From Tricholoma matsutake (Eukaryota > Basidiomycota > Agaricomycetes > Agaricales > Tricholomataceae), in contig AP026550.1 in assembly GCA_026075535.2 (NCBI GenBank), forward strand, positions 1,488,001-1,552,000: a stretch of DNA of 64,000 nt. Direction: 5' to 3'. Below are positions 6,474-64,000 of the stretch, piece after piece; positions within the stretch are counted from its first letter, which is position 1; every line of letters begins with the position of its first letter. The notes below the pieces were generated by a model. That model saw only the letters and a program-made list of their open reading frames with translations. It ran no database searches and was not told the origin of the DNA. The position numbers and the translations under genes are program-made.

Positions 6474-6707
6474 TGGGCACATCGCAAACGCGCCTTAATT
6501 GGCTGCGAACGACGTTGACTTCATCGTCTCCAAATTATAACCTTGCGCTCTTCGTGAGCTGCATTGTGCTCCCTGTGAGCTGCACATAAAACCTAGGTTG
6601 ACTAGGGTTAACCACTCTGAAGGAGTGTTTTCTCCTGAGAACGTTAAACATGTTTTATTGAGTAAAAAGACTGATTGAGCACTTTTAACAGCTGCCACCA
6701 CAAAATC

Positions 6708-9700
6708 ATGTCTTCAACTCTTGAGAAACTCGTTCAAACTTTCGACGGATCAAATTACATTCAATGGGCTGACTCAATGAAGGCATGGCTCAGGTCTCAG
6801 GGCCTCTGGCAAATAACTAGCGGGGCGGAGCAAAAACCGCCCCCGGCGACGAACGCTACTTTGGTAGCGGATGCTAATGCCAAGCTCCAGACCTGGAGCA
6901 ACAAAAATGACCAGGCCATTGGTAGCCTAGTGCTCCGCCTGGCCCCCTCCATTCAGCAGCGTGCCAACTCAAAGGACACTGCTGAGGAGGTGTGGGATCT
7001 CATCCGCACTGATTATGGTGTGGACGGCCCCTCCCAAGTCTTCGCGGACTTTAGGTCCGCAATAGCGATCAAGATCCTGGCTGCGAACCCCGCACCAGAG
7101 ATTGCTAGAATGGCAGACAAATTTGAGCGCCTTATGGCTGCTAACGTCGCCATCCCCGAGCTAGTGCAAGCAATGATTCTACTTGCTGCGATGCCGCGCG
7201 AGTACGATTCCTTGTCCGCAACGGTCCTTAACACGACCGCTACTAGCGCCTTGACATTTAAACATGTCAAGGACTCCATTGTCGCTGAAGCCTCAAGGCG
7301 CACAGCAGTAGGAAAGCCCGCTGGCCAGCCTCAGGCCAACAAACTTTCTGCTGTTAAGCGCAAAGGGGGAAACCCCAAATGGCAGCCCAAAGAAGGGCAA
7401 AACAGCAACGGAGACTCGTCCCGAAAGCGTGGACGACGTGGGGACAGAAAGACTAAGGAGGAGAAGCCGAAGGATAAACATACCCACCTCGCCTCCAAAG
7501 CCTATACCACCATAAATGGTAATGGCACCATCATACCGCCGATGCCGCTTATACAGCGCATCGAAAGATGCAAACACACTCCCACAAGGGATCCTCGCCA
7601 CCGACCGCCTGCACAGGCATATACGGGTGCGGCCTCTACCTCTCGTTCAGTTTATGCCGAATATCAGCAAGCTCGAGACACCCTCGAGCAAATGCAACTT
7701 CCGCACAGCGCGAAAAATCTGCGACCGCTGGAAGAGCACCTGACGGTGCGAGAAGGAAAGAGAAGAAGGATAGAACCAGAACCCAAGTCTAGGATCGAGG
7801 AGGTAGAAGACGATACCGTCTCCCTCGGATCTGAACCTCCAGTGTCTGATGAGGAAGTGTGGAAAGCCATCGACGAAATGCTCGTCGATGAACCCCTTAA
7901 TACAGGGGCATATGATGACAGGTCAGTCCTTTTCCCTGCCACAAGCACTAAGATTAATATTCCTATGAATACAGCGAACTTTTCATGTGAAATTTTACCG
8001 CTATTAAATGTATCATGGAATTATTTAGATCTTAATATATGTGCTATGTGTGCAAAGGGAGATTGTAAGAAAGGTGCCGACTGGATCATGGATTCAGGCG
8101 CATCAAAACACTTCACTGGTGAAATAAAAGATTTCGCTTCTTACGAGCCTTTACCGAGAAAGGACTCTACCTTGGTCCAAACGGCCACTGGTACTACTCA
8201 TATAGTAGGAAAAGGAGCAGTCTTCATTAAACACCAGGTAGTATGTCATGGGAAGTCAGAGACATGTGAAACGCGGTTATACCCCATCTACTACATACCC
8301 GACATTAATACTCGATTGATGTCAATGGGGGTCTTTTTACAAGACGGAAGTGATGTGCGTGGTTCCTCCGCACACATTTCATTTATCAAGCATGGAAACC
8401 CAATCATGCATTGTGTCCCTCTAAGGAGGAATGACACGATCTATTGGGCTCGGACTCATATATTGAGCACCAAAAAGGTTAATGTCGCGACCATTTATGT
8501 CGCTGACTACTTGACTTGGCATAAGCGACTTGGACACCCATCCAAAGAGGTGCTAGGGAAAATGCCTAAAAGCACCATAAAATTCCCAAGGAATTTAATT
8601 ATTCCTAAAGACAAAATTATATGTCCAGGGTGTGCAGAAGGGAAAATGACCTCAAAATCTTTTCCCGAGTCAGACTCACGAGCTGACAAATCCTTTGAAT
8701 TAATACATTCCGACCTAAAGGAACTCCCGGTACTATTGTACCACAAACATAAATACTTCATTGTATTTCTGGATGACAAAACGTCACATATTTGGGTCCA
8801 ATGTCTCAGAAAGAAATCTGATGCTGCTGCAGCGATTAGACAATTTCAAGCGATGGCTAAAACCCAATATGGCGCTACAATCAAGCGCTGGCGTGTCGAT
8901 CCAGGGGGGGAGTTCAAGGATCGTGAGCTACAAAAACAGCTCAAGGACTTAGGCATCAAAATAGAGATGTCTGCACCCCACGTTCATCAACAGAATGGGC
9001 GCGCAGAGCGCGCCATAAGGACAATAATGGAAAAGTTGCAAACCTTGCGATTCACCGCTTGTCTACCACAATCATGGTGGGAATTTTGCATAGAACATGC
9101 AACACATTTATACAACCGAACCCCAATAAGGCACCTGAAATGGCTGACACCTTTTGAGGACCTGACAAAGGTCCGCCCAGATCTAAACAATCTGAAGGTC
9201 TTCGGTTGTGGTGCTTATGTCTATCTACCAAAGGAAAAACGTCCAACAACATTATCTCCTCGATCGGAGTTAATGACGTACCTTGGAGTAGAAGATGGCA
9301 TTAAAGCATATTGTTTCATGCGACAAAATGGCACAATATTCATTGGTGCCATGGCACTATTTGATGAAACGATGTTCCCATGCTGTCCCAGAGCTAAAAC
9401 TCCTGCCAAGACAGACCTTGGTGATTTTCCACCTCCAGAACCAGAAGATGACGACCACTCATCTGGAACGGATGGCGATGACCCTATACCGCCACAAAAT
9501 CCGCCCCTTCCTCCATCATTAGAAGATGATGATGATGATTTACCAAGCGAGCAAAAGGCGCATGACGATGCGACTAACGCTCCTCCTCCGCCGCCTCCAG
9601 TTAACACTGAGGACTTTCATCCAAGACGTGAAGATCAACAGGAATGGCAGCAATTGCCCCATCGATCAGGCAGGCAGAGGAAAATCCCAAACCGTCCCGG

Positions 9701-11561
9701 CAATACCTATGGAGAACAGCGACTCCCCTCTGACATAGAGAGAGACATTGCGCGTGATCGATATTGGAAGAAGTCTGTGGGTCAAGATTTGGATCATAAC
9801 CGAACATGACCACGACCTCAACAGCAAGAACCGGTTACTGGACCGAGTTCGGCACCCCACGAGAGTGTGCCCGATTCCAATAATCAAGAACATGATTACC
9901 CAATGGGGGAACCGGATGAAGCAGGTTATATTAAAAAGATAACCAAGGAAGGTGGAGATGAGCTTATCCGCTGGCTGTTATCAAAAGCAGTCATACCATC
10001 AAGCGGAAAAAGCCTAGTTCCAAACCAATTTCGTGATATTGCGCGCCTACCCCGGCAGCAGCAACTTGAGTGGAAACAGGCTTGTCGTGAAGAGTTAGAG
10101 GCTCTTCACAAGCGACAAGTCTATGATATCGTCGATCTTCCACATGATCGGAAAACGATCAAAAATAGATGGGTTTTCTCCGTGAAATCGGACGGAAGAA
10201 AACGAGCCAGACTCGTGGCCAAAGGCTTTTCACAAGTCGAAGGCGTTGACTTTGATGAGATTTTCTCACCAGTAGTCCGCTACGAGACCGTACGCCTCAT
10301 GTTTGCCCTTGCGTCTCTAGAAGGCATGTATATGACCGGTCTAGATGTAAAAACTGCATTTTTATATGGCAAACTTGATGAGGAGATCTATATGGATCAA
10401 CCCGAGGGTTTCAGACTCGAGGGTAAAGAGCGCAAAGTAATGCGCTTACGCCGAGCATTGTATGGCCTTAAACAGGCTTCACTAGCATGGTGGAAAGAGC
10501 TAGAGGCATTTATGCGCACCATTGGGTTTGTGCACGCCAGCTCCGATGCCGGCATCTTCATACACAAGGATCCTAAGACAGGCAGCATCATTATTGCGCT
10601 AGTCTATGTTGACAATGGCTTGTTCATGGGCAAGAACAAGAAACTTGTGGATGAAAAGAAGAATGCTTGCCTGAAGCATTGGGAGTGCCGTAGTACTGAA
10701 AAAGTCATGGAATTCTTAGGCATGCGCGTCACCCAGACCGCTACAAAAGTCAAACTCGATCAAACAGAATATCTCGCCAAAGTGCTCGAGAGGTTCAAGA
10801 TGACAAATGCCAAAGTTGCCCCCACTCCACTCCTGACTGGCTACAAACCATCGGAGAACACAGCGATGCCAAACGCGGCGCTTAGATCGAAATATCAGTC
10901 TGTGATCGGATCTTTATTGTATCTGATGCTCAGAACGTGACCTGATATTGCTTATGCGGTAATCAAGATGTCACAATTCTCGGCTAATCCTAGCCAAGAA
11001 CATCTAGACAAAGCAATGTACATAATGCGCTATCTGGTGGGAACCCAGAAGTACAGTATAGTCTATGATGGAGAGAAATCCGAGGGGCTGCAGGCCTTCA
11101 CAGATTCTGATTGGGCAGCTGACACTGTCAAGCGCCGATCTATAACGGGTTACTTTGCTACTCTGGCGAGTGGCATTGTGTGCTGGCAGTCCCGTTTACA
11201 AAAAACTGTAGCACTGTCATCCACAGAAGCCGAATATATGGCTCTCTCCGACACTTGTCAGCAGATAGTGTGGATAGAGTCCTTATTCCAGGAACTTGGA
11301 TATACACTGAAGCACGTACCAATCTGCGCTGATAATCAGGGATCCATCTTTATTGGATCAAATCCAGTTCAGGAAAGAAGGACCAAACATATAGACATTC
11401 GCTACCACTACACCCGCGAATGCATAGAAAATGACAAAGTCACAGTCGTTTTCATTCCTGGAAGTGATAATCTGGCTGACATGTTCACAAAGAACCTTGG
11501 CGCCGTCCTATTCAGGAAATTTAGAGACTCTCTCGGAATTACTTTCGAGATTCAAACTTAG
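6708..11561 (+). pseudogene. Copia gag-pol polyprotein, two in-frame stops
   Basis: The start is taken as the ATG at 6708 (MSSTLEKL); the open frame extends 33 bases upstream only by a non-ATG codon. Gag occupies roughly residues 1-270 and ends in a basic tail without a zinc knuckle. Protease has the DSGAS active site at about residue 462 (8091). Integrase has the HKRLGH...CPGC zinc motif (8518-8635) and an NGRAERA region with the catalytic Glu. RT has RWVFSVK and LDVKTAFLYG, but the catalytic box reads YVDN, with Asn at 10614-10616, instead of YVDD. RNase H has TDSDWAAD, STEAEYMAL and ADNQG. TGA stops at 9807-9809 and 10938-10940 are in frame; the second falls in the conserved TRPDIAYAV motif at the Arg, so CGA has become TGA. 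The polyprotein cannot be made in full and the RT would be dead. Confidence 0.93.
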
Positions 11562-16680: not shown

Positions 16681-16935
16681 ACTCGTTTTGGTGTGTGTGA
16701 ATTTCTGATTTGTCAATGTCACGGGCGTCTCTCCGTTTTGATCCGGCACGAAGTGTGCCCGACAGCTTGCTTGCTCGATGCTTGAAAGCTTGACAGCTTG
16801 ACATCTTGCTTGGCTGTTTGTTTGGTGGCTGACAGCTTGCTTGCTGCCAGCACGGTGACTGGGTGCCTGCCTTAAATATGAAATAGCTGAAAGTACTTAA
16901 GTTAAAAGAAAACTATTAACCTCCGAGATATTCAA

Positions 16936-18690
16936 ATGAACAAGGTAGCCAGGTTAGACATTGGCAAGCTTTACACACAAGAACCCCCTGCTTTCGGGCA
17001 TGTGATGCTCCGATACTTCGCCTTAGATCCAGATTATGTGAACTTGAATCATGGTACGCACATATGTTTGTTTGCTATTCCGAAACATCATTCAAGATTG
17101 ACCGTTCTAGGATCTTTTGGCTCTACCCCTTTGCCAGTTTTGGCTACTGTACATCAGATGAGCGTGGAGTTCGAGGCGAATCCAGATTTATTCCATCGCA
17201 TCACGTATCTACCTCTTCTCGTCGAGGTTCGCGAACAGCTCGCACAAATGATCGGCGCAGACACCAATGAGTGCGTCCTGGTTACCAACGCGGCTACAGG
17301 TATCAACACCGTCTTGAGGAACTTCGATTGGAGCGAAGACGATATCATCGTGTCGTGTAAGCCCGGACCTCTTCGCGCATGGTTACCCCGTCTTTTAAGT
17401 CAGCTAATCGATGCCGTACCAAGTCAATACCACGTATAGGGCAATGGATAAAACTGCGCAATATCTCTCCGATGTATATCCACTCCCAAGGAGGTCCATA
17501 TTCATTATGCTCTTCCCGTCCAAGCATGACAAGATCCTTGCTGATTTCGAAGAACACATTCGTGCGCTTCGGGAGAAGAATAAGAGAAAGATCGTTGTTA
17601 TTATTGACAGCATCGTATCTAATCCGGGTGTCATTTTACCCTGGAAGCAGATGGTTAAGATCTGCAAACAATATCGTGTGTGGAGTGTCGTTGATGCAAC
17701 TCATTCTATCGGGCAAGAGTTGGACATCAATCTGAGCCGAGACCAGCCTGACTTTTGGGTCTCTGTAAGGTCTTCACTTTCTTCTCGGAGAAAAGAATAT
17801 TGATAAGCATCACAGAACTGCCACACATGGCTGTACGCGAAACGTACCTGTTCGATCTTGTATGTTCCCAAGCGGTCAGCACTTTGTTCCAATCAGGGAT
17901 GTCTCTTTGCTCATGTTTTCCTGTCTGTACTCGGCACAGTAACCTGCATATTATGAAATCGTCTCTCCCAACGTCCTATAAATATATAACCCCGCAAGAG
18001 AAGACCGTAGATAACCTCAACTTTATCGCTCAGCATGAATGTACGAGTGCATAATTGGATTTAGATCATTCTAACTTGGTTTGTTGGCAGGGGTTGGAAC
18101 CATTGATTTCTCTCCGTATCTTACTGTCTCCTCAGGTAGCTGTCCCTTGCTTGTACTTGATCTAGAGTTGTCCGACTGATAGATAGATCACGGTAGCCCT
18201 AAGATTTAGGGAATGGATTGGTGGCGAAGCCAAGATCAATGCTTATTGCCACGATATGGCGATGAGAGGCGGTAAACGACTTGCGGAGATTTTTGGCACC
18301 CGTGTGATGGATCCGGAGGGCGATTTGACTGCCAACATGGTTTGTTTGACGCCGCCTCCCTTCCGTGCTTCGGCTGATCACTCGGTCTGTTGGCAGGTAA
18401 ATGTGGAACTGCCCATTCCTGTTAGTGTCCAATTCAATCGAGCATTAGAGCAGCAATTCGACCACGAGCTGCTGGTCAAGCACAAGGTATATTCTGCGTA
18501 TTTTCAGCATAATAAGATTTGGTGGACCCGATGCAGTGCGCAAGTCTTCACTGAGGTTTGTGCTACGGTCACTTTGTTTCTGAGAATGTTAGCTTGTTGA
18601 TGATTGTACATCTAGATGCAAGATTTTGAGATACTAGGAAAAGCCTGGTTACATCTCATTCGTGAGGTGACGGCAAAAGTCGCGATTTGA
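16936..18690 (+). CDS. PLP-dependent class V aminotransferase-fold protein, paralog 1 (active-site Lys replaced)
   Basis: The gene has eight exons: 16936-17053, 17111-17356, 17424-17764, 17816-17874, 17940-18040, 18091-18135, 18197-18555 and 18616-18690. Together they give 447 residues, normal for this family, which includes isopenicillin-N epimerase-like proteins and hercynylcysteine sulfoxide lyases. Visible motifs are NLNHGSFGSTPLPVL near the N terminus, VTNAATGINTVLRNFDW (cofactor phosphate region), SNPGVILPWKQM, VVDATHSIGQ (the Asp contacts the pyridine ring) and GTIDFSPYLTV. The family signature NCHKWLYA reads NCHTWLYA here: codon 239 is ACA (Thr), where the lysine that forms the Schiff base is expected. 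All introns are GT-AG, 50-67 bp, and the frame is intact. The paralog at 44116-45855 has the same intron positions and keeps the lysine. The substrate is unknown; a non-enzymatic or altered role is possible. Confidence 0.88.
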
Positions 18691-21400: not shown

Positions 21401-23420
21401 CTAGAGAGGGATGGTCCCAGACCGTGCCTTGGAGTCCTCATGCCCGTGGACAGTCCCCGACTTGTTTATAATTCTCATCTGTTTACCTCTGCTCAGATAC
21501 GGCCCATCGTCGTGGCTGCGAATGTAGTATGCCCAGTCCGCAGTGTCGTCAGATTCAGTCTGTGAGAAGCCATTGCCCAAATATGCAAACCGATTGCCAG
21601 AATAGGCGATATTCCAGTCATCATACCGTACTTCCGAGATCGCTTCCATGTAATGCAAAGTGCTTCCCGGCCATAGAGCAGTGACTTTCCCAGAACTGCT
21701 GTTTTTGTACCACGACCGACAATCCTGTTCCCAAACTGTATTCTTCATGAATTGGTCTTTATGGACAATGAAATCTTCAACTGCTTCCATCTTGGGCGAG
21801 AAGCTATGGATGTTTTCTGTCTGCCACCGGTTGGCCATCTTGAGTATATAGCCAATTTGTGCTTCTGAAGATGTAGATGATTATAAAAGCTTTACGACAA
21901 ATTTAACATGATGAACTTACCGATGGCACATAAAAGGGGCCCGTTTCCGGTTGGACTATTAGGGCCGATAACGACGAAGTAGTTTGGGAATTCTGGGACT
22001 GCCAATCCGAAATAGCTTTTCGCCTCGTCAGCCCATACTTCATCCAAGCCTCTTCCATTGGCGCCGATTAAAGGGAAGCGCGGCTTGTATGAGGTATCAA
22101 ACCCAGTGGCGCATATCAGAACATCTAGAGGATATTCCTTCCCATTGGCGGCCAGGCATCCCCTTTCCGTGATTCTTTCAATCTCACCGTAGACGACTTC
22201 AACATTATCGGCTCCCAAAGTCTCGAGGTAGTTCACTCCGGGCGTAAATCGTCGGCAACCCACTCCAAATTGTGGTATTAACTTGGCTTCCAAATCATCA
22301 TTTTGCAACTTCTCTTTCATCTGCGCGTGCATGGTGCTACGTATGATTGACTGCGCCTCCGTATCCAGTTTGAACATTGGGAAAAGGGCGTTTATATTCT
22401 CCTCCTGCCTCTTTCTATATTGTAAATGGACTTCAGGATTCGTTTTGAACTCCTCGCGATCTTCCTCGCTGTAGAGACGTTGCTCAAATCCTTGAACAGG
22501 AGCAACCCAAGTTCCCCGACGAACAAAAGTTGTGATCTTCGAAACCACTGGATGAATCGCTGGGAGTGTTTGAATGGCAGAAGAGCTGCACAGTACTCTA
22601 CATGAACATCGATGAAGGCAATCATAGAAGACGTACCCATTGCCAATTATACCGACGTGCTTACCCTTTAAATCGGTGGTCCTATCGTAATTAGCCGTGT
22701 GCAAGAGGACTCCTTTAAAATCGTTAAGTCCAGGTATCGATGGCCATTTCCAGGAATTTAATACGCCTCCTGCATTAATAAAAATGTCGCACTGATCGTG
22801 GAATGTGGAACCAGTGTTCAAGTCAATAATTTGGATATCCCAGCCGCCGGTCGATTCGTTCCACCTTGCTCCCGAGACCATATGCTTCGTTTTACAGTAC
22901 TTGAACAAGTCGTACTTGGTTGCGAACGCATCGAAGTAGCCCCAAATTTCGTCAGAACTAGCATACACGGCGGACCAATCAGGGTTGGGTTCGAAACTCC
23001 ATGTATACATATGTGCCGGGACGTCACAGGCGCAACTACAGTGACTTTGTCAGCGTATAGTGTATAGCAAACGCGAACAACTGCTTGCCCAGGATATTTG
23101 TTCTCATACCAGGTTCCACCGATTTGGTCATTCTTTTCATACAAGACGAGGCTGAAATTATTGAAAGAACGTTGGAGTTTGTATGCCAACAGAAGTCCGG
23201 ACGCTCCCGCGCCGATACAGATGATTTTCATATGACGTTCCTTGCAGATGTGGTCCTGCAGACGGAGGCTCTCATGGTGGTGTACTGCTGCAGCACTGAT
23301 TGCCTCGCTAGTGAGAACGGGAGAGATATAGTCGTTCGCCATTTTGCACAGTTGTTGGTCAGTCGGAGCGATTGAGTTCAAGGGGGGCGGAAGGAATCCG
23401 AAGTACCCGTCTGCACGCAT
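21401..23420 (-). CDS. Flavin-containing monooxygenase (Baeyer-Villiger / HAPMO-like)
   Basis: Four exons, in transcript order 23420-23089, 23035-22637, 22585-21921 and 21864-21401, give 619 residues. The FAD Rossmann motif GAGASG is at residues 70-75 and GGTWYENKYPG at 101-111. A second (NADPH) Rossmann motif, IGNGSSAIQ, is assembled across intron 2. ATGFDTSYKPRFP and FPNYFVVIGPNSPTGNGP are typical of this group. The Baeyer-Villiger fingerprint is degenerate (FKGVLLHTANYD), so ketone oxygenation versus another oxidation cannot be decided. Intron 1 (23036-23088) has a GC donor, GG|GCAAGC, and a TAG acceptor. Using it restores the conserved PGCACDVPAHMYTWSF junction in frame. The intron 3 acceptor could lie 3 bases further on. 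It is the nearest protein gene to aminotransferase paralog 1; a shared pathway is possible but unproven. Confidence 0.9.
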
Positions 23421-29597: not shown

Positions 29598-32500
29598 CTA
29601 TGTCAGATACCAATTTCTTTGCTCTGTTTCATGCATCAGTTTGCAGAGTTGCTGGTCTTCCTCATACAACATCTCAGATGGGTGCGTCGTCAGCAGTGCA
29701 TTGTCGAAATCTCTCAACAGCCTGATCATTTGCCGTCCTCTGCTACAAGATAGTGCCACATACGCTCCAAAAGGTGTGATGTTCCCTGTGGGTGGCTTTG
29801 CTAAATCCACTACCACGCACTCCAATGTCTGACCTTGTGCTTTGTAATCTGTAAAGGCATATCCTCCCGTCAGCGCAATTTGTCACCTGGTCACCCTGAA
29901 CTTGTTGCCTCGCAGACCCTTTACTGTAAAACTTCATTCTGTTGGAAAGATAGGTATGAGCCCCTCTTGCAAACCTGTGAATGCAGGCACACTGCTCTTG
30001 GCTGGCTGGAAGATGATTACCGTGGGTGGGTACTGCAATTGGACTCTCCCCTCAGGTGCAAACCCAAACGGACCGACAGTCTCTCTAGGGTCCAGGACAA
30101 TGTCTCGGATCTCCCCACGTGTCCCGTTCATGTTGATGATCACCATCGCTTTCATTCCGACTGCAAGTTCCATGGTCTGCTCTAACTTTTCAGTGTCCTT
30201 GGGCTTCATGCCTGCAACTATCACCCATGCTTCTAGGCTCAGTTTTGCCCGGTCGGTACCTGTAGTGTCCTCTGCAGGTGCAATAAAGAGTGTCCTGCCT
30301 GAATTGACACAATGCCGCTGCAAAGCCGCACTGTTCCACCTTGTCCAAACAGAATGAGGTGGCATCACTAACTGCCTCTGACCATGGCAATTTGGTAAAA
30401 TCAGGCACCTCACATTCTTCACTCATTAACACCAGCTTCCTCACCTCTTTCACGTCTTCTGCCATACATTCTCCTTCTTGTTGCCTCGCGAGCAGCTCTA
30501 CCCATTGTGTGTCTTGCACCCTGATCTGCTCACGCAGATCAACAACCACATTGAACTGCTCAAAAAGGTGGCGGCCTACTTGCTGCCTTTGAGATTTGTG
30601 TTCGGTGCAGTACAGCGCTCCGGTAGTGTTTCCAACAGGGGGGAACTGGTGAAAATCCCCGAAAAGAATAATGTTCATTCCCCCAAATGGAGTAGTAGCA
30701 TCCACACCATCTGTGTCATTACGCTCATTCCCCAGTACCTCTGATAGAAAAGTGGTGACTTCCTTCATTAGCATTGAGTGTTCATCAATGATTAGGCACC
30801 ACTTCCCCTTAACATTCACCATTCTGCTTGTTCGCGTCTTCTTGCTGGCATTCTGAGTGCTTCTCCCATTTCGAGGGATGCCTGCCCATGCATGCAATGT
30901 CATTCCTTGGATCAGGCTGGCTGTGATTCCCGTGGTCACTGTTTTTGCCAACATGTGTCCAGCGTGCAGTGTTTCAAATGTTTTAGTGATTTGTTCTATT
31001 AGCATTGACTTGCCTGTTCCCCCTGCACCTTGTATGATCATTAAAAGCTGAACAGGTTGTTGACCTGCGAGGTGGGCTTCCAAGTGGTGCACAACAATAT
31101 CATGCGCCCGTCGTTGGTCAGGTTTCAACAACCCCAGACTCATGTCGGGCTGCGTAGGCAGTGATGGCTCTGCTGTTGCATTTGCAGCTGACTCCTTCTC
31201 GCCCCCCAACATTGTTCCGAAGCTCTCTGCTACTCTTGTGCCCATCGTGTCTTGTGCACTCCAGGTTATGCTATGCAGCTTATGCTCCCATTCTTGATAA
31301 ACTTCCAGGTCCTCAACTGTCGCCCTTTCAGCTGGTGCCCTGAACGTGGTGCTCACTGGGCCTGTCAGAAAAATCCCACACTCCTCTGCAATCAACATCG
31401 CGGCATCTGCATACCATATGTCGCGCTTGTCCCACACCAATGCTTGTGCTAATTGGACATCCTCCTCTGAAAGCACAGGTTCGGAAGGAGGGGTTTCATC
31501 ATTTACTCCTTCTTCATCTTGGGTGTCTCCCACTTCAAGCCCTGTGAGTGACCCTGCCTCATTTTCTTGTCAGTGTTTGCCAGCGCAGTTTGAACATTCG
31601 TAGTGGTACTGGATGTTGTCCACAATGTATAGCGCTTTCAGTGTTGCAAGGCAGAGGAATTGGGCAAGAGCTTCTGTGAAACTCTCTCTCTCACCCCTCA
31701 AATCCTGAAGTGTTTTCCAAGGTTGAAGAAGCACTAACATACTCGCAGCATACAACTCTTCATGGTCACCATCATCTTTGCTTGGGAACCACTGGCCCAC
31801 AAAATTAGGCAACATCTTGTGGCCCTCTGACATATGATATGACAATGCTCCTGTTGCCCACTCTCCTCAGTGTATGGAACATGACCACTCCGCAGTCTGC
31901 CCCTTCTCTGTTCAGTATATGCTTCAGGTTTGTTCTGGACTGGGGTGTCACCTTCGTATGTGTCCACAAAGAAATCCAACAAGGAGTGACTGGCGAGAGC
32001 CTCCCCACAGTCTGAGTAATCTTTGAGTTGGTCCTGTAACACCAGCTTATCGCCTAGCAGCGACAATCAAATATTGTCCCCCTGTAAAAACCATCAGGTG
32101 CCACTTCGGGGAGCAGTGAGACCACCTCTTACTGTGATGTTGGCTGTGGTGTCCTGTTCAGGGGTTACCAAAGGCATAGTGAAGGGTCTGCAAATGTTGT
32201 GAGTGCGGGATCTGAGTGTGCTGTGTCGGCTTACCATCTCGGGTTTAACTCTGGGAATGCTGTCTTCACTGCATGGAGGATGGTGTCCCAATAAATGTCA
32301 ACATAATTGTGTGACAGGAAACGGTCTCCCCAACCCATCAAGTAGTTCATGACTTCCGGGGCACTAAATTCCTGTTGATGGGTCAATGTGTTTGTGCACC
32401 TCTGAATGAGTTTCTTGTTTACGTCTATGCAATTTGTGTTGTGCCTCTCCTGTTTAACATGGTATGCTAACCGGGTGGCCAACAGTGCAGACGTGTTCGA

Positions 32501-35374
32501 AGATTTAGTCTGTTTTTTGGTAGTGTAGTTCGTGATGTAAAATGACAGGTTGTTGGTGTCTTCTCCATTTGTGATCAGTTTCACATCATGGTTGGCCCAT
32601 AGACAGTGTAGTAAAGCTGGGTTCCAGTTGTTCAAATACCCATAAGAACGACATGGTCCCCATTGTCCTGTGGCATCAATCCAATCCTCCATTGCTGTGG
32701 GGAACGGAGCCTGCCTCTTGCATTGTTGGCGACTATTTTTCACCACCAGACAGTTGTCCAAAGAACACTGGTGGATCTGGACTGCTCGAGCCAAATGTCG
32801 TTCGATCTGCTTCAAACTTTCCTCTGCATCCCTGGCTCATGGATCTGCTGGTTGGGCATATGTAACCGCTTTCTTTTTCTCTATCTTCAGCACCTCTGCT
32901 GCTCCCATGCCATCCAGATCTGCACGAATGGTGGTTTGGATATACATCTTAACTTGCTGTCTAAAGTTATTATCCCCCAGTGACTCCTTCATTTTGGTAG
33001 CACACGGCGCGCCTTCTATCCATAAGATCATGTGGAGATGGAGGGTTCCCCACCCTTGGGCTTCTACAGTGCCTATGTAGGCACCAATTTTACCGAATAT
33101 ACCTTCCTTGTGCCTGATCCTCTGTCTCTTTGCCCCAGCATCGATCCCAAAAAGAGCCTGCAACACCAAATTGATAGTGAAGTGGAAAAACTTTGCAGCT
33201 GCATAGGGGTCTGCGGCGATCGTAAGTACCCATTGTGTAGTGTCTGGGCCACTAGTGGCTGCAAAAGTGTCCATGTCGATCTCCTCTCCTGCAAAAACTT
33301 GCACCACTGGATCATGAGTGTCTGATGGATTGATAGTGATCCACAAGGATGGAGGACCTTTCATCACAGCTGTTGACCATATCTTCGACCTAATTTGTGT
33401 CTGGGACTCATCTGTTCCCATGACGTTTGCTCAAACAGCCGTGAGTTGTGACCTCAGTGCTTTGACACTTGGGTTGGAGAATGGCACTCTGCGACTTTCT
33501 TCAGCACTCACCCGTTTCAAATCTGAGCTGGTCACTTTGGCAATGACCGGTTCCAATGCCCGGAAGCTGCTGCGATTGATTTGAAGGGCAGCCGAGCAAC
33601 ATACTTGATGCTTTTGTATCACACCAAAAACCTGAAAGATGAAATGCAGGTCCTTTCTGAACCTGCAATCTGCGTAATGCAGTGCCCAGCATACATGCTT
33701 CTCATAAGGTACCACTGTTTCTCGCCCAACTTCAAACCCCCCTTTGCCAAATGGGAACAGAACAGGGAATGCACCTAACAAGTGATTTGGGTCACATGGT
33801 CCCCCATCACTTCGTTCACCCATTAGCGGATTAACTCGTGGATACTCATTCACAAAGGCACTGCTCCACTGGATGGTGAAGTCTGGGATAGGCACATTCA
33901 CCGTGTTTGAAAAAGTGTGCGCAAGAATGTCGCTGTGTGGTATATTGGCTCCTGCAACATCTACCACACCCATGGCTTGGAAGGCAATGATCACAGGATC
34001 TGTTAACAGTTTTGTAGGATTGTCAATCATTTGCTCAATAGACTAACCTTTTGCAACCTCATCCTGCAGCTCTGCATGTGGTTGCAGATCCAGGTCCATC
34101 ACTCCTACGTACAACACAACTGTTTTCAAGTTTAGGCTAGCGGTGTAGTGAATTCACCTACCTGCTGCCCCTGCTGCCAACACAAACTCTGTGCTGTCCT
34201 CATCGTCCTGTGGAATGTATGAAGCATGCTCCTGTGCAAGCAAACTGGTGTCATTGGACACCTTGGTTACAGCGAGCAGCTCCTCCGGAATACCATCAAT
34301 TGGTAGTTGGTCGAGCCTTTCATTTGTGACTGTGATGTCAGCATATAAAGGATTGTTGCCTTTTAGCCATAGCAGGGCGTCTAGCACCTGCTGTCTCCAC
34401 ACCCAGAAAAAATCTGGAAGGGTACGCTCTTGGAAGCCTGTAGGGCCTGCAAATGTGATTCCTATTGTCGCTGCAAGGATCTGAGCAGGAGGTGGCATGA
34501 TTGCACCTGTGACCATATCACCAAGATCGCTGATGTTGAGTTTGTACATGGATACATTCCCTCTCAAACCACTCTTCATCATTTTCTTGTCCCAGAAGCA
34601 AGCACCCTTCTTCTTTGGAAACATTTTGACAATGTAAGCCGCCAGAAAATATCTGGCGATCAGCATTCATTCTGGCAAAGTCAAGACTGACAACTGGAAA
34701 GGCACCTCACCTACCCACATGCCATTTGCCAAGGCTAACGGGGGCTTTTTTTGGGACTTCAAGTGGCATTCACATTCGTGGCACAAATGCCCTTTCCTTT
34801 CCTCGTCAATTGCCAGGTGGTAAAGCAACATCCCATCTGTCAAGTGGTGTGAATGGTGAGTCTCTGTGGGTACCAGCAAGTGGGTGTTCGACAACCCTGC
34901 CAATGCACATGGTGATGCCTCTCCCTTCAAAAACTCCTGTGTGCAAACTATGCATATGATCTGTTGGAGGGCTTCGTTAGACATCCCTTCAATGTATTGT
35001 GTAATACAGTCATGGATTGTCAACATGGATGGCACTCTGAGGAAGCCCTCTGCTGGCCCCTGAAATGGTTCACATCCTCCCTCCTCCCCTGACTGCAGGA
35101 ATGGCCAGACATTTCTTGACTCTGGCTTCCTTGGAGCCTTCCACTTTTTATTGAATGGTAGAGCTTGCATAAGGGCTTCTTTGGAGACCTCTGATGTATG
35201 CTTAAGTTGAAACGCAAGCAGCTGCCTCGTTCTTTTGCATGGTGGAGGCAACATGGTAATTGCATTGCAAATACTGAACACTTTGGCTAAAGTCATGGAC
35301 GAGACTACATGGTCGATCTCTTCATTGCTAACACGTGTGGAGGCCATGTCCATACCATCACTCATGAAAAACAA
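29598..35374 (-). mobile_element. Helitron, nearly complete Rep/helicase gene, inactivated
   Basis: The domains run in the right order on the minus strand. At 35374-34670 is the N-terminal Helitron region, with a CHEC motif and ALANGMWVGEVP. It continues to 34154, after a TGA in the LTLPE/LIARYF junction at 34667-34669. At 34030-32837 is the Rep (Helitron-like N) domain with HLLGAFPVLFPFG, WITINPSDTHDP, the HUH motif GWGTLHLHMILW and a Tyr in KMYIQTTIRADL. At 32815-31570 is the linker, with WNPALLHCLWANHDVK and NFVGQWFP. At 31533-29598 is a PIF1-type helicase with Walker A GAGGTGKS, LIIDEHSML, FGDFHQFPPV and PFGAYVALSCSRGR. An intron GTAGGTG...ACGTAG fits near 34100-34160. Further TGA stops are at 33431-33433 and 32837-32839, with a few frameshifts in the helicase. 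I could not define the TC and CTRR termini. Confidence 0.88.
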
Positions 35375-41869: not shown

Positions 41870-43160
41870 ATGGTAAGCGTTCGTTGTTGGGCGCCGACGA
41901 GCTCTAGATTCATCGGTTCTATATCTCGAGAATCGTTAAACAACGAGATGGATGCCATGTTTTTCATCTGGATGACCTTTCGGTTTTCAAACTTACGCTT
42001 GGTGGTTTCTACCGCCGCAGAAAGATTTTTCTTCCTACAACGCTTGGCACTCTTGAAGCCATGATGTGCGTTGTATGCTGGGTTGTGCACACTTCGGTGT
42101 CTCACGACGCTAGAGCTCCGAGGCGCAGTGTCAACTACAACCTAGTTACCATTGCTAACCAAACCTCGTCTCAATGACCAGCCTCCCAAGTCCAAGACCG
42201 GATCCAGCAAGAAGCCTGCTGCTGCGCCTTTTGGTGCCAGCAAGGCCACGAAGACCAAGAAAAACCCTCTCTTTGAGGGCAACGCCAAGAACTTCGGTAT
42301 CGGTATGTGATTATTTTTCTCGTTTTCTTTTCAAGTTCATGCAACGTCGACGACAATTAGGTCAGGATATTCAGCCGACGAGGGACATGACTCGTTTCGT
42401 CAAATGGCCCGAATACGTTCGCCTCCAGCGCCAGAAGGTTATTCTGAACCAACGCCTGAAGGTCCCGCCTGCGATTGCACAATTCTCGCACACCTTGGAC
42501 AAGAACACCGCCACGCAGCTTTTCAAGCTTCTGAACAAGTACCGCCCGGAATCGAAGCAGGAGAAGAAGACCCGTCTCGAGGCTACTGCTGCCGCCACTG
42601 CCGAGGACAAGGAGAAGGACGTCAAGGTTCGTTCCTTACTCCTTGTGTTTATTCACGCTTCTAGACTGACATATTTGCAGGACTCCAAGAAGCCCCTGTT
42701 TGCCAAGTATGGACTGAACCATGTCGTTGCCCTCGTCGAGGCGAAGAAAGCTGAGCTCGTTGTCATCGCCCACGATGTGGACCCTATCGAGCTCGTAGTC
42801 TTCCTTCCCGCTCTGTGCCGCAAGATGGGTGTACCCTATGTCATTGTGAAGGGCAAGGCTCGTCTCGGCACTGTCGTGCACAAGAAGACGGCTGCAGTCG
42901 TGGCCATCCAGGAGGTGAAGAGCGAGGACCAGAGGGAGCTGGGAACGCTAGTGAGCGCTGCCAAGGCCAATTTGTACGTGCTCTGGTGTTCTGGTATTGA
43001 ATGAAAAGTATTGATTTCGTGTCGTAGCTCTGACAAATATGAAGAGCAGAGGCGCCAGTGGGGTGGAGGTGTTCGTGGCAATAAGTCGACTGCTATGCTT
43101 CGTAAGCGTGCGAAGGCTGCTGGGCAGAATCATACTGCTGCTCACCTTGGCAAGCTCTGA
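41870..43160 (+). CDS. RPL8: 60S ribosomal protein eL8 (L7Ae family)
   Basis: Five coding exons: 41870-41872 (only the ATG), 42182-42302, 42361-42626, 42681-42973 and 43028-43160, 271 residues. The protein begins [15 protein letters not shown] and contains [69 protein letters not shown] (the L7Ae/L30e core), [18 protein letters not shown] and the C-terminal basic stretch. It binds 28S rRNA in the large subunit. Intron 1 follows the start codon directly and is 309 bp, much longer than the other three (54-58 bp); long first introns are common in fungal ribosomal protein genes. No stops or shifts. Confidence 0.97.
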
Positions 43161-44115: not shown

Positions 44116-45855
44116 TCACCCAATTTCGAGCCCTCCCAATACCTCCTCGATTGCTTCTAACCATGCTTTCCCGAGTTTATCGAAATCTTCGATCTAAACA
44201 ATGATCAGCCTTCCAAACAAGCTAAGAAACAAAGTGACAGAGCACAAACCTCAGTGAAGACTTGCGCACTGCATCGGGTCCACCAAACCCCATTATGTTG
44301 GAAGAACGCGGAATAGGCCTTGCGCTTGATGAGCATCTCTTCATTCAATTTTCGGTCCAAATTGTTACTGAATTGGGTAGTGTCAGGAATCGGCAGTTGC
44401 ACATTTACCTGCCAACAGAGCAAATCATAAGCCGATGCATCGAAAGGAGGTAACACCAAATGAACCATGTTGAGAGTCAACTCTCCATCCGGATCCATTA
44501 CACGGGTGCCGAAAATCTCCGCAAGTCGTTTACCGCCTCGGATTGCTAGATCGTGGCAATAAGCATTGATCTTCTCTTCGCCACCAAGCCACTCTCTGAA
44601 TCGAAGCGCTGTCTGACGTGTCAGTCGACCAACGGCATATCAAATACGAACAAGAGATGATACCTGAGGGGACAGTAAGATACGGAGAGAAATCAATGGT
44701 TCCAACCCCTGCCAACAAACCTAGTCAGAACAATCCAAATCAAACTATGCACTCGTACATTCATGCTGAACAATAAAGTTCAGGTCATCCTTGCCAGGGT
44801 CGTGCGACGAGATATATTTGTAGGACGTTGGGAGGGACGATTTCATAATATGAAGGTGACTGTGCCAAGTACAGGACAAGATCAGCAAAGAAACAAGTTC
44901 ACTGATTGAAACAAAATTCTGACCGCTTGGGAACATATAAAATGGAACAAGTACGTCGCGCGTAGAGCCATTTATGACAGTTCTAACACCATCATCAGTA
45001 TTATTTCCTCCGAGAACAAGGTCTAAATCTTACAGAGACCCAGAAGTCTGGCTTGGCTTCGCTCAGATTGATGTTCAACTCTTGCCCAACAGAATGAGCT
45101 GCGTCAATGATGCTCCACACGCGATATTGTTTGCAAATCGCAACCATCTCTTTCCAAGGTAAAGGAACACCAGGATTGGATATGATGGCGTCGATAATAA
45201 CAATGATCTTTTTCTTGTTCTTCTTCCGAAGCTTACGAATGTGCTTCTCGAAATCAGCGAGGATTTGCGCATGAGTGCATGGAAAGAGAAGAGTGATTAT
45301 GGACCTTGCTGGGCGTGGATGTACATCGGACATATATTGCGCGCTTTTATCCATTGACTTGTAAGTGGTGTTGACTTGATACGAATCAATTAGCATGGAC
45401 TCAGACGGGGTGATCATGCGCGAAGATACTTACAAGTCACTATGACATCCTCTTTGTTCCAATCGAAGTTCCTCAAGACGGTGTTGATGGCTGTAGCGGC
45501 GTTGGTAACGAGGACACACTCGTCGGTCTCTGCACCGATCATTTTTGCGAGCTGTTCGCGAACCGTGCGGAGACGAGGCAGATACGTGATGCGATGGAAT
45601 AAATCCGGATTTGACTCGAACTCTACGCTCATCTTGTGTACGTCGATCAAAACTGGTAAAGGGGTAGCGCCGAAAGATCCTACAGAAGTCAATCTTGAAC
45701 GATGCTTCGGAATGGCAAAACAAAAAGATAGGCGTACCATGATTCAAGTTCACAAACTCTGGATCTATGGCGAAGTATTGTAGCATCTGATGCCCAAAAG
45801 GAGGCGGATCCTGCTTGTAAACCTCATCAAGGTCTAACCTGGCTACCTTGTTCAT
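44116..45855 (-). CDS. PLP-dependent class V aminotransferase-fold protein, paralog 2
   Basis: Eight exons in transcript order: 45855-45738, 45679-45434, 45374-45034, 44982-44924, 44859-44759, 44708-44664, 44608-44250 and 44193-44116. They give 448 residues. Exons 1-7 have exactly the same lengths as in the paralog at 16936-18690, so one is a duplicate of the other. Motifs: NLNHGSFGATPLPVL, VTNAATAINTVLRNFDW, SNPGVPLPWKEM, IIDAAHSVGQ, NCHKWLYARR with the PLP lysine at residue 239, and GTIDFSPYLTV. This copy should be catalytically competent. The closest described families are isopenicillin-N epimerase-like and hercynylcysteine sulfoxide lyase proteins; the substrate is not known. Upstream GCAAGCAAGCTGTCAG words (45960-46060) mirror those upstream of paralog 1. 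Confidence 0.9.
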
Positions 45856-60657: not shown

Positions 60658-61823
60658 ATGCCTGATAAACCCCTCTCACAAACCGGTTTCCTCCCTGCCA
60701 AGTCATGGCAGCACTTCGTAGCTGGAGGGTTAGTGTCTTATGTTCTGTGTTTGTCTCGTTATAATATTCTAAATGATGCATGCATGGATCAATAGTCTGG
60801 GAGGAATGTGCGGTGCAATTGTGACGAGCCCATTCGATGTTGTGAAAACGCGGCTACAGTCGAGTCTTTTTCGAGAAAAAAGTACTTCGGTAGGTCTTAT
60901 GGGAAGTGGGGGAAGTGTCGTGGTAGGTGCACCTAGATCCAATGGTCTATTATGGAACTTTGTGGAAACGGGACATATACTACGGTACGTTCATCTCACA
61001 AGTCCGAGTCCGAGTGGCATTATGTCTAATAGCAGATTACAGTGATATCTACCGGGAAGAATCACCACGCGCTCTTTTTAAAGGCCTTGGCCCAACACTT
61101 GTCGGTGTCGTCCCCGCGCGCTCAATAAATTTCTACACATATGGGAACGGCAAGCAAATAATTGCCAACCATTTCAACAACGGGCAAGAAAACACGTATG
61201 TTCACTTGTCAGCTGCAGCAATTGCGGGTATCGTCACTGGGACCGCTACGAACCCTATCTGGGTCGTCAAAACGAGGCTGCAGCTATCTGCATCAAATCA
61301 CAAGGACATGGCAGGGCAACGGGTCATTGGCAGCAGTTGGAACACGATAAAGCTCATCATGAGAGAAGGTGGTATTCGAGGATTTTACAAGGGCCTCAGT
61401 GCGAGCTATTTGGGTGTGACGGAAGGGACTATTCAATGGGTTCTTTATGAACGACTGAAGAAACTCACTGCGAACGCGGAGGGCAAAGGTGGCGCACAGG
61501 AGTGGCTAGGGATGCTGGGGAGTGCCGGAACGGCAAAGTGTGTGGCCAGTCTGATAACCTACCCTCATGAAGTGCGTATCGTGTTGTCTGGAATGTCAGC
61601 GTCAATATTGAATTCGTCACAGGTATTGCGGACACGACTAAGGCAGCCCAGCGTTAATGGCGTTCTCAAATACACCGGACTGGTGCAGACGCTGCGACTG
61701 GTCATTGCAGAAGAAGGCGCACGATCGTTATACGGTGGCTTGAGCGCACACCTGATGCGAGTCGTCCCCAATGCAGCTGTCATGTACTCGATATACGAAG
61801 GGATCCTCCGCTGGGGCAAATAA
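60658..61823 (+). CDS. RIM2: Mitochondrial carrier, RIM2 / pyrimidine nucleotide type
   Basis: Four exons: 60658-60728, 60796-60984, 61043-61571 and 61623-61823; 329 residues. The start is ATG 60658 (MPDKPLSQTGF), in frame with the conserved SWQHFVAGGLGGMCGAIVTSP, which crosses intron 1. The three carrier repeats each have the PxDxxKxR-type signature: SPFDVVKTRLQ, NPIWVVKTRLQ and YPHEVLRTRLR. The Trp in repeat 2 and the HEV in repeat 3 are typical of the RIM2/SLC25A33/36 subfamily. These proteins exchange pyrimidine nucleotides across the inner mitochondrial membrane and support mtDNA maintenance. Other matches are YKGLSASYLGVTEGTIQW and YGGLSAHLMRVVPNAAVMY. The exact substrate is by homology. 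Confidence 0.92.
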
Positions 61824-62720: not shown

Positions 62721-64000
62721 TCACCCCTCTCTAGGCCTAAAGCTCCAAATCTCCATAACCGTCTTCCCGGCCCTCTTCCCCATAACAGCACACGTCCCAT
62801 CTTTCGTATACCCCACCTTCCACACGCACTCCCCCTCCTCACTCAACTCCCTCACATACCTCCCACTCCCCGTCTCAAATAACCTAACACGCCCATCGTT
62901 TCCCCCCGTCACCAAAAACCGCCCATCAAATTGCAACGCAGTCACACTCGAATCGTGCGCTGCCAGTCGGTGTAGTGGGAGGTAGGTCGATAGTGAGAAT
63001 GTGATCACGCGTCCGTCAGACCCCCCGGTGGCGAGTAGTGAGTGTGAGGGGGAGAGTTGGAGTTGGCAGACGAGGGCGGTGTGGCCTTGCAGGAGGGCGG
63101 TGCATTGTCTGGATGGAAGGAAGGTTAGTGTGCTTTGGTAGGTGGGAGGAGATAGATAATTTACCCAGTCTCGGCGTCCCAGATGCGGACGGTAGTATCG
63201 AGACCTCCGGAAGCGACACGTACACCATCAAATGCGACAGAGTATATCTGCGAAAAATGGCCTCGCAGGTCGTGTAAACACTCTCCCGTATCAATGTTCC
63301 ACAACTAGAATCAACAAACATCAGCTTCACCGTCCACCAAAAGGATGAAAAACTCACCCGACAAGTCATATCATAGCTCCCGCTAACAGCTCTCTTCCCA
63401 TTCACATCCAAACACCTAACACTCCCCCCATGGCCCCTCAAACACCTCACCGCCCTACCCCTCTGCACGTCCCACACTCTCACCGTCCCGTCCCTCGATC
63501 CCGTCACCGCGATCGGCCGTCCATGCAACACACGCATGCACCGGATCGTCGAGGTGTGCCCCGGAAGCGTGTATATACAGTACCTGCATGTACGTGGTGA
63601 GCAAGATATCAATCATAGGAAGACGAAGACGACAACGGCGTACCCAGATTTAACATCCCATACCCTGACGACTTTGTCGCAACCCCCACTAACGACGAGT
63701 GCGTTTGGTTGTCCCCACCCTTCCGAGGCGAAGCAAGGATCACTCTGTCGGTCTGGGACGTACGCAGGCGTAGCAGGACAAGGGCCTACATCGACGAACA
63801 TTAAAACGAGAGAACCAGAAAAAAAGCAAATAACAAAAAAGCAAACCTGCTTCGTCCTCTGCATCCTCATCAACTACACCTCTTCCCCCTACTCCTTGTT
63901 GTTCTCGTTCTCGTCCTTCTTCTACCGCACCATCTCCCTCTCCTTTGCCCTCCGGACCCAACCCAAGCGCGATCCGCAAATTCGGGGACACAAGATAATC
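62721..64000 (-). CDS. WD40-repeat protein, Cdc4/Fbw7-like, C-terminal part (cut by window edge)
   Basis: Exons on the minus strand: from beyond the window to 63847, then 63785-63644, 63583-63358, 63304-63165 and 63108-62721. WD repeats are clear: [119 protein letters not shown] and FLVTGGNDGRVRLFETGSG. The protein ends IWSFRPREG. The spacing, the acidic DEDAEDEAG linker and the wording of the repeats resemble the substrate-binding propeller of Cdc4-type SCF ubiquitin ligase subunits. The F-box would lie outside the window, so the Cdc4 assignment is an inference. Confidence 0.82.

What the first reader, a model, noticed from the sequence alone, without database searches (positions are those of the whole stretch)
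16936..18690. Aminotransferase paralog 1 lacks the PLP-binding lysine but has an intact frame
Codon 239 is ACA (Thr) in NCHTWLYA, where the paralog at 44116-45855 has AAA (Lys) in NCHKWLYA. Class V aminotransferases form the cofactor Schiff base on this lysine. Eight exons, all splice sites and the rest of the active-site motifs are preserved, so this looks like a retained pseudoenzyme or a very recent loss rather than an old pseudogene.
Basis: partly seen in the sequence, partly recalled or inferred. Interest (0 to 1): 0.75.

Follow-up and report, generated by a model that had tools for sequence, protein, structure and literature searches.

The report
Matsutake enzyme copy without cofactor lysine
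The matsutake mushroom carries an intact-looking spare copy of a vitamin-B6-dependent enzyme whose cofactor-holding lysine has become threonine, so it can hardly work as that enzyme, and it is either a recently disabled duplicate or a protein kept for a non-enzymatic job.

Summary
The core observation holds. Copy 1 (16936-18690, +) is an intact gene of 9 exons (not 8), 428 aa; codon 239 is ACA (Thr) where copy 2 has AAA (Lys). The window matches the Tricholoma matsutake HiFi assembly. The proteins belong to the fungal Egt2/LolT family (C-S lyase / Mannich cyclase). Of 240 homologs examined, 238 have Lys there and 2 lack the segment. These two are the only copy-1-specific changes at 136 conserved positions. 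An old pseudogene is rejected: more than about 0.02-0.03 neutral substitutions per site since the loss does not fit. A recent loss and a retained pseudoenzyme both fit; I lean slightly to recent loss in a redundant family (copy 3, C13:1596678-1598418, and copy 4 on C3 keep the lysine). dN/dS is model-dependent: copy 1 omega 0.34 with a clock constraint, 1.1-1.65 without. Expression and population frequency are unknown.

The parts
16936..18690 (+). Copy 1 gene, 9 exons: 16936-17053, 17111-17356, 17424-17764, 17816-17874, 17940-18040, 18091-18135, 18197-18339, 18397-18555, 18616-18690; 428 aa
   Evidence: spliced by homology, all introns GT-AG, no stop; Pfam Aminotran_5 2.2e-14
17825..17827 (+). 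Codon 239, ACA (Thr) in place of the PLP Schiff-base lysine
17699..17701 (+). Codon 214, ACT (Thr) in place of the ring-packing alanine
   Evidence: role of Ala182 in MsEgtE, PMC10805701
44116..45855 (-). Copy 2 gene, 9 exons: 45855-45738, 45679-45434, 45374-45034, 44982-44924, 44859-44759, 44708-44664, 44608-44466, 44408-44250, 44193-44116; 429 aa; Lys239 and Ala214 present
   Evidence: Pfam Aminotran_5 7e-16
44971..44973 (-). Copy 2 codon 239, AAA (Lys)
16761..16935 (+). About 175 bp upstream of copy 1 that align with the upstream region of copies 2 and 3 (limit of the duplicated unit)
   Evidence: 78% over 1926 columns between copies 1 and 2

Best explanation
Copy 1 is a duplicate of a fungal Egt2/LolT-type, fold-type I PLP enzyme that kept its coding frame but lost the residue that holds the cofactor covalently (Lys239 to Thr) and the alanine that packs on the PLP ring (Ala214 to Thr). 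Shown: the sequence changes and the intact gene. Inferred from close precedents: it cannot form the internal aldimine and so cannot do the family's chemistry, though it probably still folds, may bind PLP weakly and may pair with copies 2 and 3. Most likely reading: the loss is recent on the scale of the duplication, tolerated because three lysine-bearing relatives remain, and little drift has followed. Maintenance as a non-catalytic subunit is the close runner-up.
For: Thr at 239 against Lys in 238 of 240 homologs, the other 2 lacking the segment. K203A of the related MsEgtE loses activity while keeping some PLP binding (PMC10805701, section 7). Redundancy: copy 2 in the window, copy 3 at C13:1596678-1598418 (94.9% identical to copy 2) and copy 4 on C3, all with Lys. 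Recent on the duplication scale: 2 of 136 conserved positions changed specifically in copy 1, both in the pocket, none of the other 129; neutral drift over 10% of its branch fits with P 0.02-0.05, over 15% with P 0.0005-0.006. The cis PLP contacts Y126, D212, H215, N236 and H238 are still in place, as expected if the loss is young. Best database hit to copy 1 is 73% identical (proteins of about 235-749 aa), and nothing closer appeared among shorter ones (about 108-345 aa).
Against: Both copy-1-specific conserved-site changes fall among the 7 pocket positions (hypergeometric P 0.002 to 0.014 by conservation threshold; 0.044 to 0.11 for the second given the first), which hints at a directed change of the pocket rather than random decay. 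Under a clock constraint copy 1 has omega 0.34 and omega = 1 is rejected (LRT 34.9). Absence of a protein record is weak evidence, since genes of this assembly were transferred from an older annotation. No expression, read or population data.
Confidence: 0.5

Rival explanations
1. Retained pseudoenzyme: copy 1 is kept by selection as a non-catalytic subunit. Because the active sites of this family take residues from both subunits of a dimer, it would pair with copy 2 or 3, lend trans residues (probably Thr292, the counterpart of Egt2 Thr307) to the partner's active site and tune it, as LCB1 does for LCB2 or the dead deoxyhypusine synthase paralog does for its partner.
For: Clock-constrained omega 0.34, omega = 1 rejected (LRT 34.9). 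Protein rate not clearly raised: 56 v 41 polarised differences, 2 ties, P 0.15; branch 0.177 v 0.207 for copy 2. T292 and R396 are retained, as is the stretch 286-312 with 2 differences in 27 from copy 2. Two pocket substitutions and no other copy-1-specific conserved-site hit. Precedents: PMC3794620 (passages), PMC3663545 (abstract).
Against: Without the clock constraint copy 1 omega is 1.1-1.65, higher than the other branches (LRT 10.5) and not different from 1 (LRT 0.2). With single outgroups copy 1 has slightly more unique changes than copy 2 (mean 27.0 v 24.6; in 73 of 119 outgroups). Five cis PLP contacts that a PLP-free subunit would not need are still there. No protein record found. 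Heterodimerisation was not tested.
Confidence: 0.33
2. Altered or residual chemistry: copy 1 binds PLP or PMP non-covalently and works without the lysine, as a carrier, sensor or slow catalyst.
For: MsEgtE K203A still binds some PLP. Asp212, His215, Tyr126, Asn236 and His238 are retained in copy 1.
Against: MsEgtE K203A is inactive. The pocket also lost the ring-packing Ala. Thr cannot make a Schiff base (established chemistry). The only lysine of residues 205-260 that copy 1 has and copy 2 lacks is K244, the family consensus there.
Confidence: 0.08
3. Base error in the assembly, or an allele of only one of the two nuclei of the dikaryon.
For: Single base difference; the sequenced sporocarps gave 1.05% heterozygosity and two sets of phased contigs (PMC10211490). 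No reads were available here.
Against: PacBio HiFi assembly; a second, independent base change (A214T) lies in the same pocket.
Confidence: 0.09

Closest known systems
Egt2, hercynylcysteine sulfoxide lyase (Neurospora crassa, PDB 5uts/5v12/5v1x)
   Same: Best sequence match of copy 2 in the PDB (E 3e-72) and best fold match of P0001, the close relative of copies 2/3 (E 4e-40, TM 0.87). Tyr134, Asp221, Asn244, His246, Thr307 and Arg438 have identical counterparts in copy 1 (Y126, D212, N236, H238, T292, R396; mapping through the alignment).
   Different: Copy 1 lacks the Schiff-base Lys (K247) and Ala223; all four T. matsutake copies have His where Egt2 has Gln224; only 32-33% identity to P0001, so the substrate is not established.
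LolT, PLP-dependent Mannich cyclase (PDB 8dl5)
   Same: Next-best relative (E 1e-70; TM 0.86); same A-H-S motif after the pyridine Asp as copies 2-4.
   Different: LolT has the lysine (DCHKW) and the Ala; copy 1 has neither.
LCB1/SPTLC1, lysine-less subunit of serine palmitoyltransferase
   Same: A homologous subunit without the PLP lysine paired with one that has it (PMC3794620, passages).
   Different: Another fold-type I subfamily, with an established complex; for copy 1 pairing and need are unknown and most other pocket residues remain.
Catalytically dead deoxyhypusine synthase paralog of trypanosomatids
   Same: A dead paralog of a metabolic enzyme; there heterotetramer formation with it raises activity 3000-fold (PMC3663545, abstract).
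   Different: Not a PLP enzyme and not of this fold (recalled); analogy only.

Membership tests
Fungal Egt2/LolT-like class V family (Aminotran_5) | Full-length sequence and profile similarity | tested here: met
   PF00266 2.2e-14 for copy 1; 523 homologs at E <= 0.001, 120 listed
Fungal Egt2/LolT-like class V family (Aminotran_5) | Egt2/LolT fold | tested here: inconclusive
   Met for the close relative P0001 (pLDDT 94.0); the spliced copy 1 protein itself was not folded because of the tool's input rule
Fungal Egt2/LolT-like class V family (Aminotran_5) | Schiff-base lysine in N/D-C-H-K-W | tested here: not met
   Thr in copy 1; so it is a homolog of the family, not a functional PLP enzyme of it
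Egt2 (ergothioneine C-S lyase) | Cleavage of hercynylcysteine sulfoxide | not testable with these tools
   No assay; even copies 2-4 are not assigned a substrate
Pseudoenzyme (retained catalytically dead paralog) | Loss of an essential catalytic residue in an intact gene | tested here: met
Pseudoenzyme (retained catalytically dead paralog) | Purifying selection after the loss | tested here: inconclusive
   Clock-constrained omega 0.34 but unconstrained 1.1-1.65; neither dates the loss
Pseudoenzyme (retained catalytically dead paralog) | Expressed protein with a function | not testable with these tools
   No RNA data; no close copy-1 entry in the protein collection
Pseudogene | Stops, frameshifts, splice-site loss | tested here: not met
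   None in 9 exons and 8 introns

The most novel reading that the evidence does not exclude
Copy 1 is a lysine-less member of the Egt2/LolT family, the only one I saw with a substitution at that site: a PLP-free partner that forms obligate or regulatory heterodimers with copy 2/3 and gates C-S lyase or Mannich-type chemistry in matsutake, an independent invention of the LCB1/LCB2 arrangement caught at an early stage.
Probability: 0.2. Interest if true: 0.65.

Novelty: new member of a known kind. Interest (0 to 1): 0.38.

Why it matters
The classic lysine-less PLP paralog, LCB1, is known only long after the event (recalled). Here the loss is caught with almost nothing else changed at conserved sites, beside two close lysine-bearing sister copies within about 94 kb, so one can test whether a pseudoenzyme starts as a neutral null or as a useful partner. 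If copy 1 proves unexpressed or polymorphic, it is an ordinary young null allele of a redundant gene.

Tried and rejected
Old pseudogene: rejected (intact frame and splice sites; simulation). Compensating lysine near the pocket: among residues 205-260 copy 1 has one lysine that copy 2 lacks, K244, which is the family consensus. Another copy of the Thr form in the genome: none found (the tool calls its counts lower bounds). Copy 1 or pieces of it in the protein collection: nothing above 73% identity; a search with residues 99-295 returned 35 hits, the top one 49% identical over 82%. Unconstrained branch codon model: copy 1 omega 1.1-1.65, but it splits the synonymous distance as 0.063 on copy 1 against 0.33 on the copy 2/3 stem with a saturated outgroup (dS about 1.7), so I do not lean on it; the clock-constrained version costs 3.0 in twice lnL. 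The clustering statistic is post hoc, because Lys239 was the reason for looking; P 0.002-0.014, or 0.044-0.11 for the second change given the first. My first mapping of the two phosphate contacts (residues 101 and 102) was one residue off; with 100 and 101 the counts and P values are unchanged, since neither is 85% conserved. Neighbouring genes as a biosynthetic cluster: nothing convincing; 20 of 56 listed ORFs were scanned with Pfam. Paper searches for a lysine-less member of this family, judged by listing only: one search gave 0 papers, one (a B. subtilis survey), 13 (12 listed, none with such a title), 0.

Full report
What is there. Copy 1 lies at 16936-18690 on the + strand, copy 2 at 45855-44116 on the - strand. 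Both resolve into nine exons and eight GT-AG introns of matching phase, 428 and 429 codons, no stop; 315 residues are identical (alignment, gene models). Codon 239 is ACA in copy 1 (17825-17827) and AAA in copy 2.

Where it is. The own-genome search places the window at C13:1488001-1552000 of an assembly of 161,040,721 bases in 13 contigs. The Tricholoma matsutake telomere-to-telomere paper describes 13 sequences spanning 161.0 Mb from PacBio HiFi reads of two sporocarps, heterozygosity 1.05% (PMC10211490; part 1 of 3 and passages seen). Protein P0001, named as T. matsutake, differs from copy 2 at 3 of 429 residues. Genes in that assembly were transferred from an older annotation, which may be why copy 1 has no protein record: the best hit to copy 1 in a collection of 5.8 billion sequences is P0001 at 73% (120 of 523 hits listed), and a search with residues 99-295 for shorter entries gave 35 hits, the top one 49% identical over 82% of the query.

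Family in this genome. Two protein searches of the assembly show four genes, by the tool's note a lower bound: copies 1 and 2; copy 3 at C13:1596678-1598418 (+), 94.9% identical to copy 2 in protein; and copy 4 on C3 near 9279539-9281126 (-). All but copy 1 have NCHKW and DAAHS. Copy 4 is 99.8% identical to P0017, an unnamed 'lgn' protein whose longest contig is 1850 bases; a 438-aa frame on so short a contig suggests, as an inference, a spliced transcript. I saw no such entry for copy 1, nor for copies 2 and 3 (P0001 has only ncbi/nr as sources). The general PF00266 search of the genome did not complete (14 tries, listed in Tried and rejected).

What kind of protein. PDB sequence search with copy 2: Egt2 of Neurospora (5uts, E 3.2e-72) and 8dl5 (E 1e-70), which the fold library names LolT, a PLP-dependent Mannich cyclase. 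The AlphaFold2 model of P0001 (pLDDT 94.0, pTM 0.93) matches Egt2 (E 4e-40, TM 0.87) and LolT (E 1.7e-39, TM 0.86), far ahead of the next group, led by the cysteine desulfurase SufS (E 2.7e-19). Substrate and reaction of the T. matsutake copies remain unassigned.

The pocket. Passages and section 7 of the MsEgtE paper (PMC10805701) list PLP contacts and their NcEgt2 counterparts: Lys203/247 Schiff base, Asp180/221, Gln183/224, Tyr106/134, Ser200/Asn244, Arg202/His246, Ser82/Ala106, Asn83/Thr107; the ring is sandwiched between Tyr106 and Ala182; K203A is inactive but keeps some PLP binding. Mapped through the alignment (A223 of Egt2 for Ala182 is my mapping), copy 1 keeps Y126, D212, H215, N236 and H238 and has lost K239 and A214, both to Thr. 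Copies 1-3 share Ala at 101, where 117 of 119 homologs have Ser or Thr. Lys239: 120 of 120 homologs and 118 of 120 in a second set seeded with LolT; the two others, P0215 and P0270 from Penicillium griseofulvum-type genomes, lack the KWLYTPR stretch. Ala214: 119 of 120 and 120 of 120. T292 and R396, counterparts of Egt2 Thr307 and Arg438, are present in copy 1.

Has copy 1 decayed? Of 136 positions at least 85% conserved among 119 homologs (P0001 dropped), copy 1 alone differs at two, 214 and 239; four more differ in copies 1 and 2 alike; copies 2 and 3 together differ at seven others. Of 99 residues at which copy 1 differs from an agreed copy 2/3 state, the homologs assign 56 changes to copy 1 and 41 to copies 2/3, 2 ties (P 0.15); against single outgroups copy 1 has more unique changes in 73 of 119. 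In the tree of 41 sequences the copy 1 branch is 0.177 and the copy 2 branch 0.207. Neutral simulation with the clock-based branch (0.22 synonymous substitutions per site): drift over 10% of the branch leaves two or fewer conserved hits and no stop with probability 0.022 (136 positions) or 0.048 (107 positions); over 15%, 0.0005 or 0.006. So no more than about 0.02-0.03 neutral substitutions per site can have followed the loss, some two to three times the reported heterozygosity: an old pseudogene is out, a loss of about allele age is not.

dN/dS. Pairwise copy 1-copy 2: dN 0.167, dS 0.440, ratio 0.38; introns differ by 0.28 (JC). On the four-copy tree the unconstrained models give copy 1 a ratio of 1.1-1.65, above the other branches (LRT 10.5) and not different from 1 (LRT 0.2); but they put 0.063 synonymous substitutions on copy 1 and 0.33 on the sister stem, which two lineages of one genome should not show. 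With equal synonymous depth imposed (cost 3.0 in twice lnL, not significant at 5%), copy 1 has 0.34 and 1 is rejected (LRT 34.9); its ratio does not differ from that of the sister stem (LRT 1.3). Selection over most of the life of copy 1 is therefore likely but model-dependent, and none of this says what happened after the lysine was lost.

How it would work. Without Lys239 no internal aldimine can form, and the transaldimination steps that load substrate and release product are lost (established PLP chemistry). The protein probably still folds and may dimerise; the family's active sites take residues from both subunits. If copy 1 meets copy 2 or 3, mixed dimers would hold one lysine-bearing and one dead site. 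LCB1, which lacks the lysine, works that way with LCB2 (PMC3794620, passages), and a dead paralog raises deoxyhypusine synthase activity 3000-fold in trypanosomatids (PMC3663545, abstract). Pairing of copy 1 is inference only.

Verdict. Dead as a PLP enzyme: about 0.9 by my judgement. Recent loss in a redundant family is slightly favoured over a retained pseudoenzyme because the other cis PLP contacts are untouched and no record of its product was found; the pocket-only pattern of change keeps the pseudoenzyme reading open. As a kind, dead paralogs of PLP enzymes are known; within the Egt2/LolT family I saw no other residue at this lysine in 240 homologs, and the paper searches, judged by their listings, showed no paper describing one.

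Noticed in passing
G000:C13:1596678-1598418 (L009): Third copy of the gene outside the window, 94.9% identical in protein to copy 2, lysine present; homology to the copy 2 region spans about 2.5 kb at 94%.
   Followed up: yes
window copies 1 and 2, codon 101, and copy 3: Copies 1-3 share Ala at the counterpart of Egt2 Thr107, a PLP-phosphate contact, where 117 of 119 homologs have Ser or Thr; so the lineage had probably altered its pocket before copy 1 lost the lysine.
   Followed up: no
P0215 and P0270 (Penicillium griseofulvum-type proteins): Both lack the lysine loop KWLYTPR (NCH directly followed by NCAV); perhaps a false intron in the gene model, perhaps other lysine-less members.
   Followed up: partly
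window 18080-18140 and 44660-44720: Exon 6 and the adjoining intron end are almost identical between copies 1 and 2 (1 of 15 codons differs) although the genes differ by about 22%; strong constraint or gene conversion.
   Followed up: no
P0001 (annotated T. matsutake protein): Differs from copy 2 at 3 residues, each time showing the copy 3 state, which suggests conversion between the copies or a collapsed older assembly.
   Followed up: no
window 6675-10937 (+): Copia-type LTR retrotransposon: gag, integrase and reverse transcriptase domains.
   Followed up: no
window 30193-35374 (-): PIF1-like helicase ORF and, further upstream, an ORF with the start of DUF6570; perhaps a Helitron-type element (Pfam; the Helitron label is recalled).
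   Followed up: no
window 21895-23420 (-): FMO-like and NAD-binding ORFs of a probable flavin monooxygenase gene between copies 1 and 2.
   Followed up: no
window 42174-43001 (+), 60927-61820 (+), 63019-63612 (-): ORFs with L7Ae-type, mitochondrial-carrier and WD40 domains, probably ordinary housekeeping genes.
   Followed up: no
P0002 (Lanmaoa asiatica, 671 aa): One annotated protein seems to hold one complete and one partial family domain in tandem; probably two fused neighbouring genes (sequence seen).
   Followed up: no
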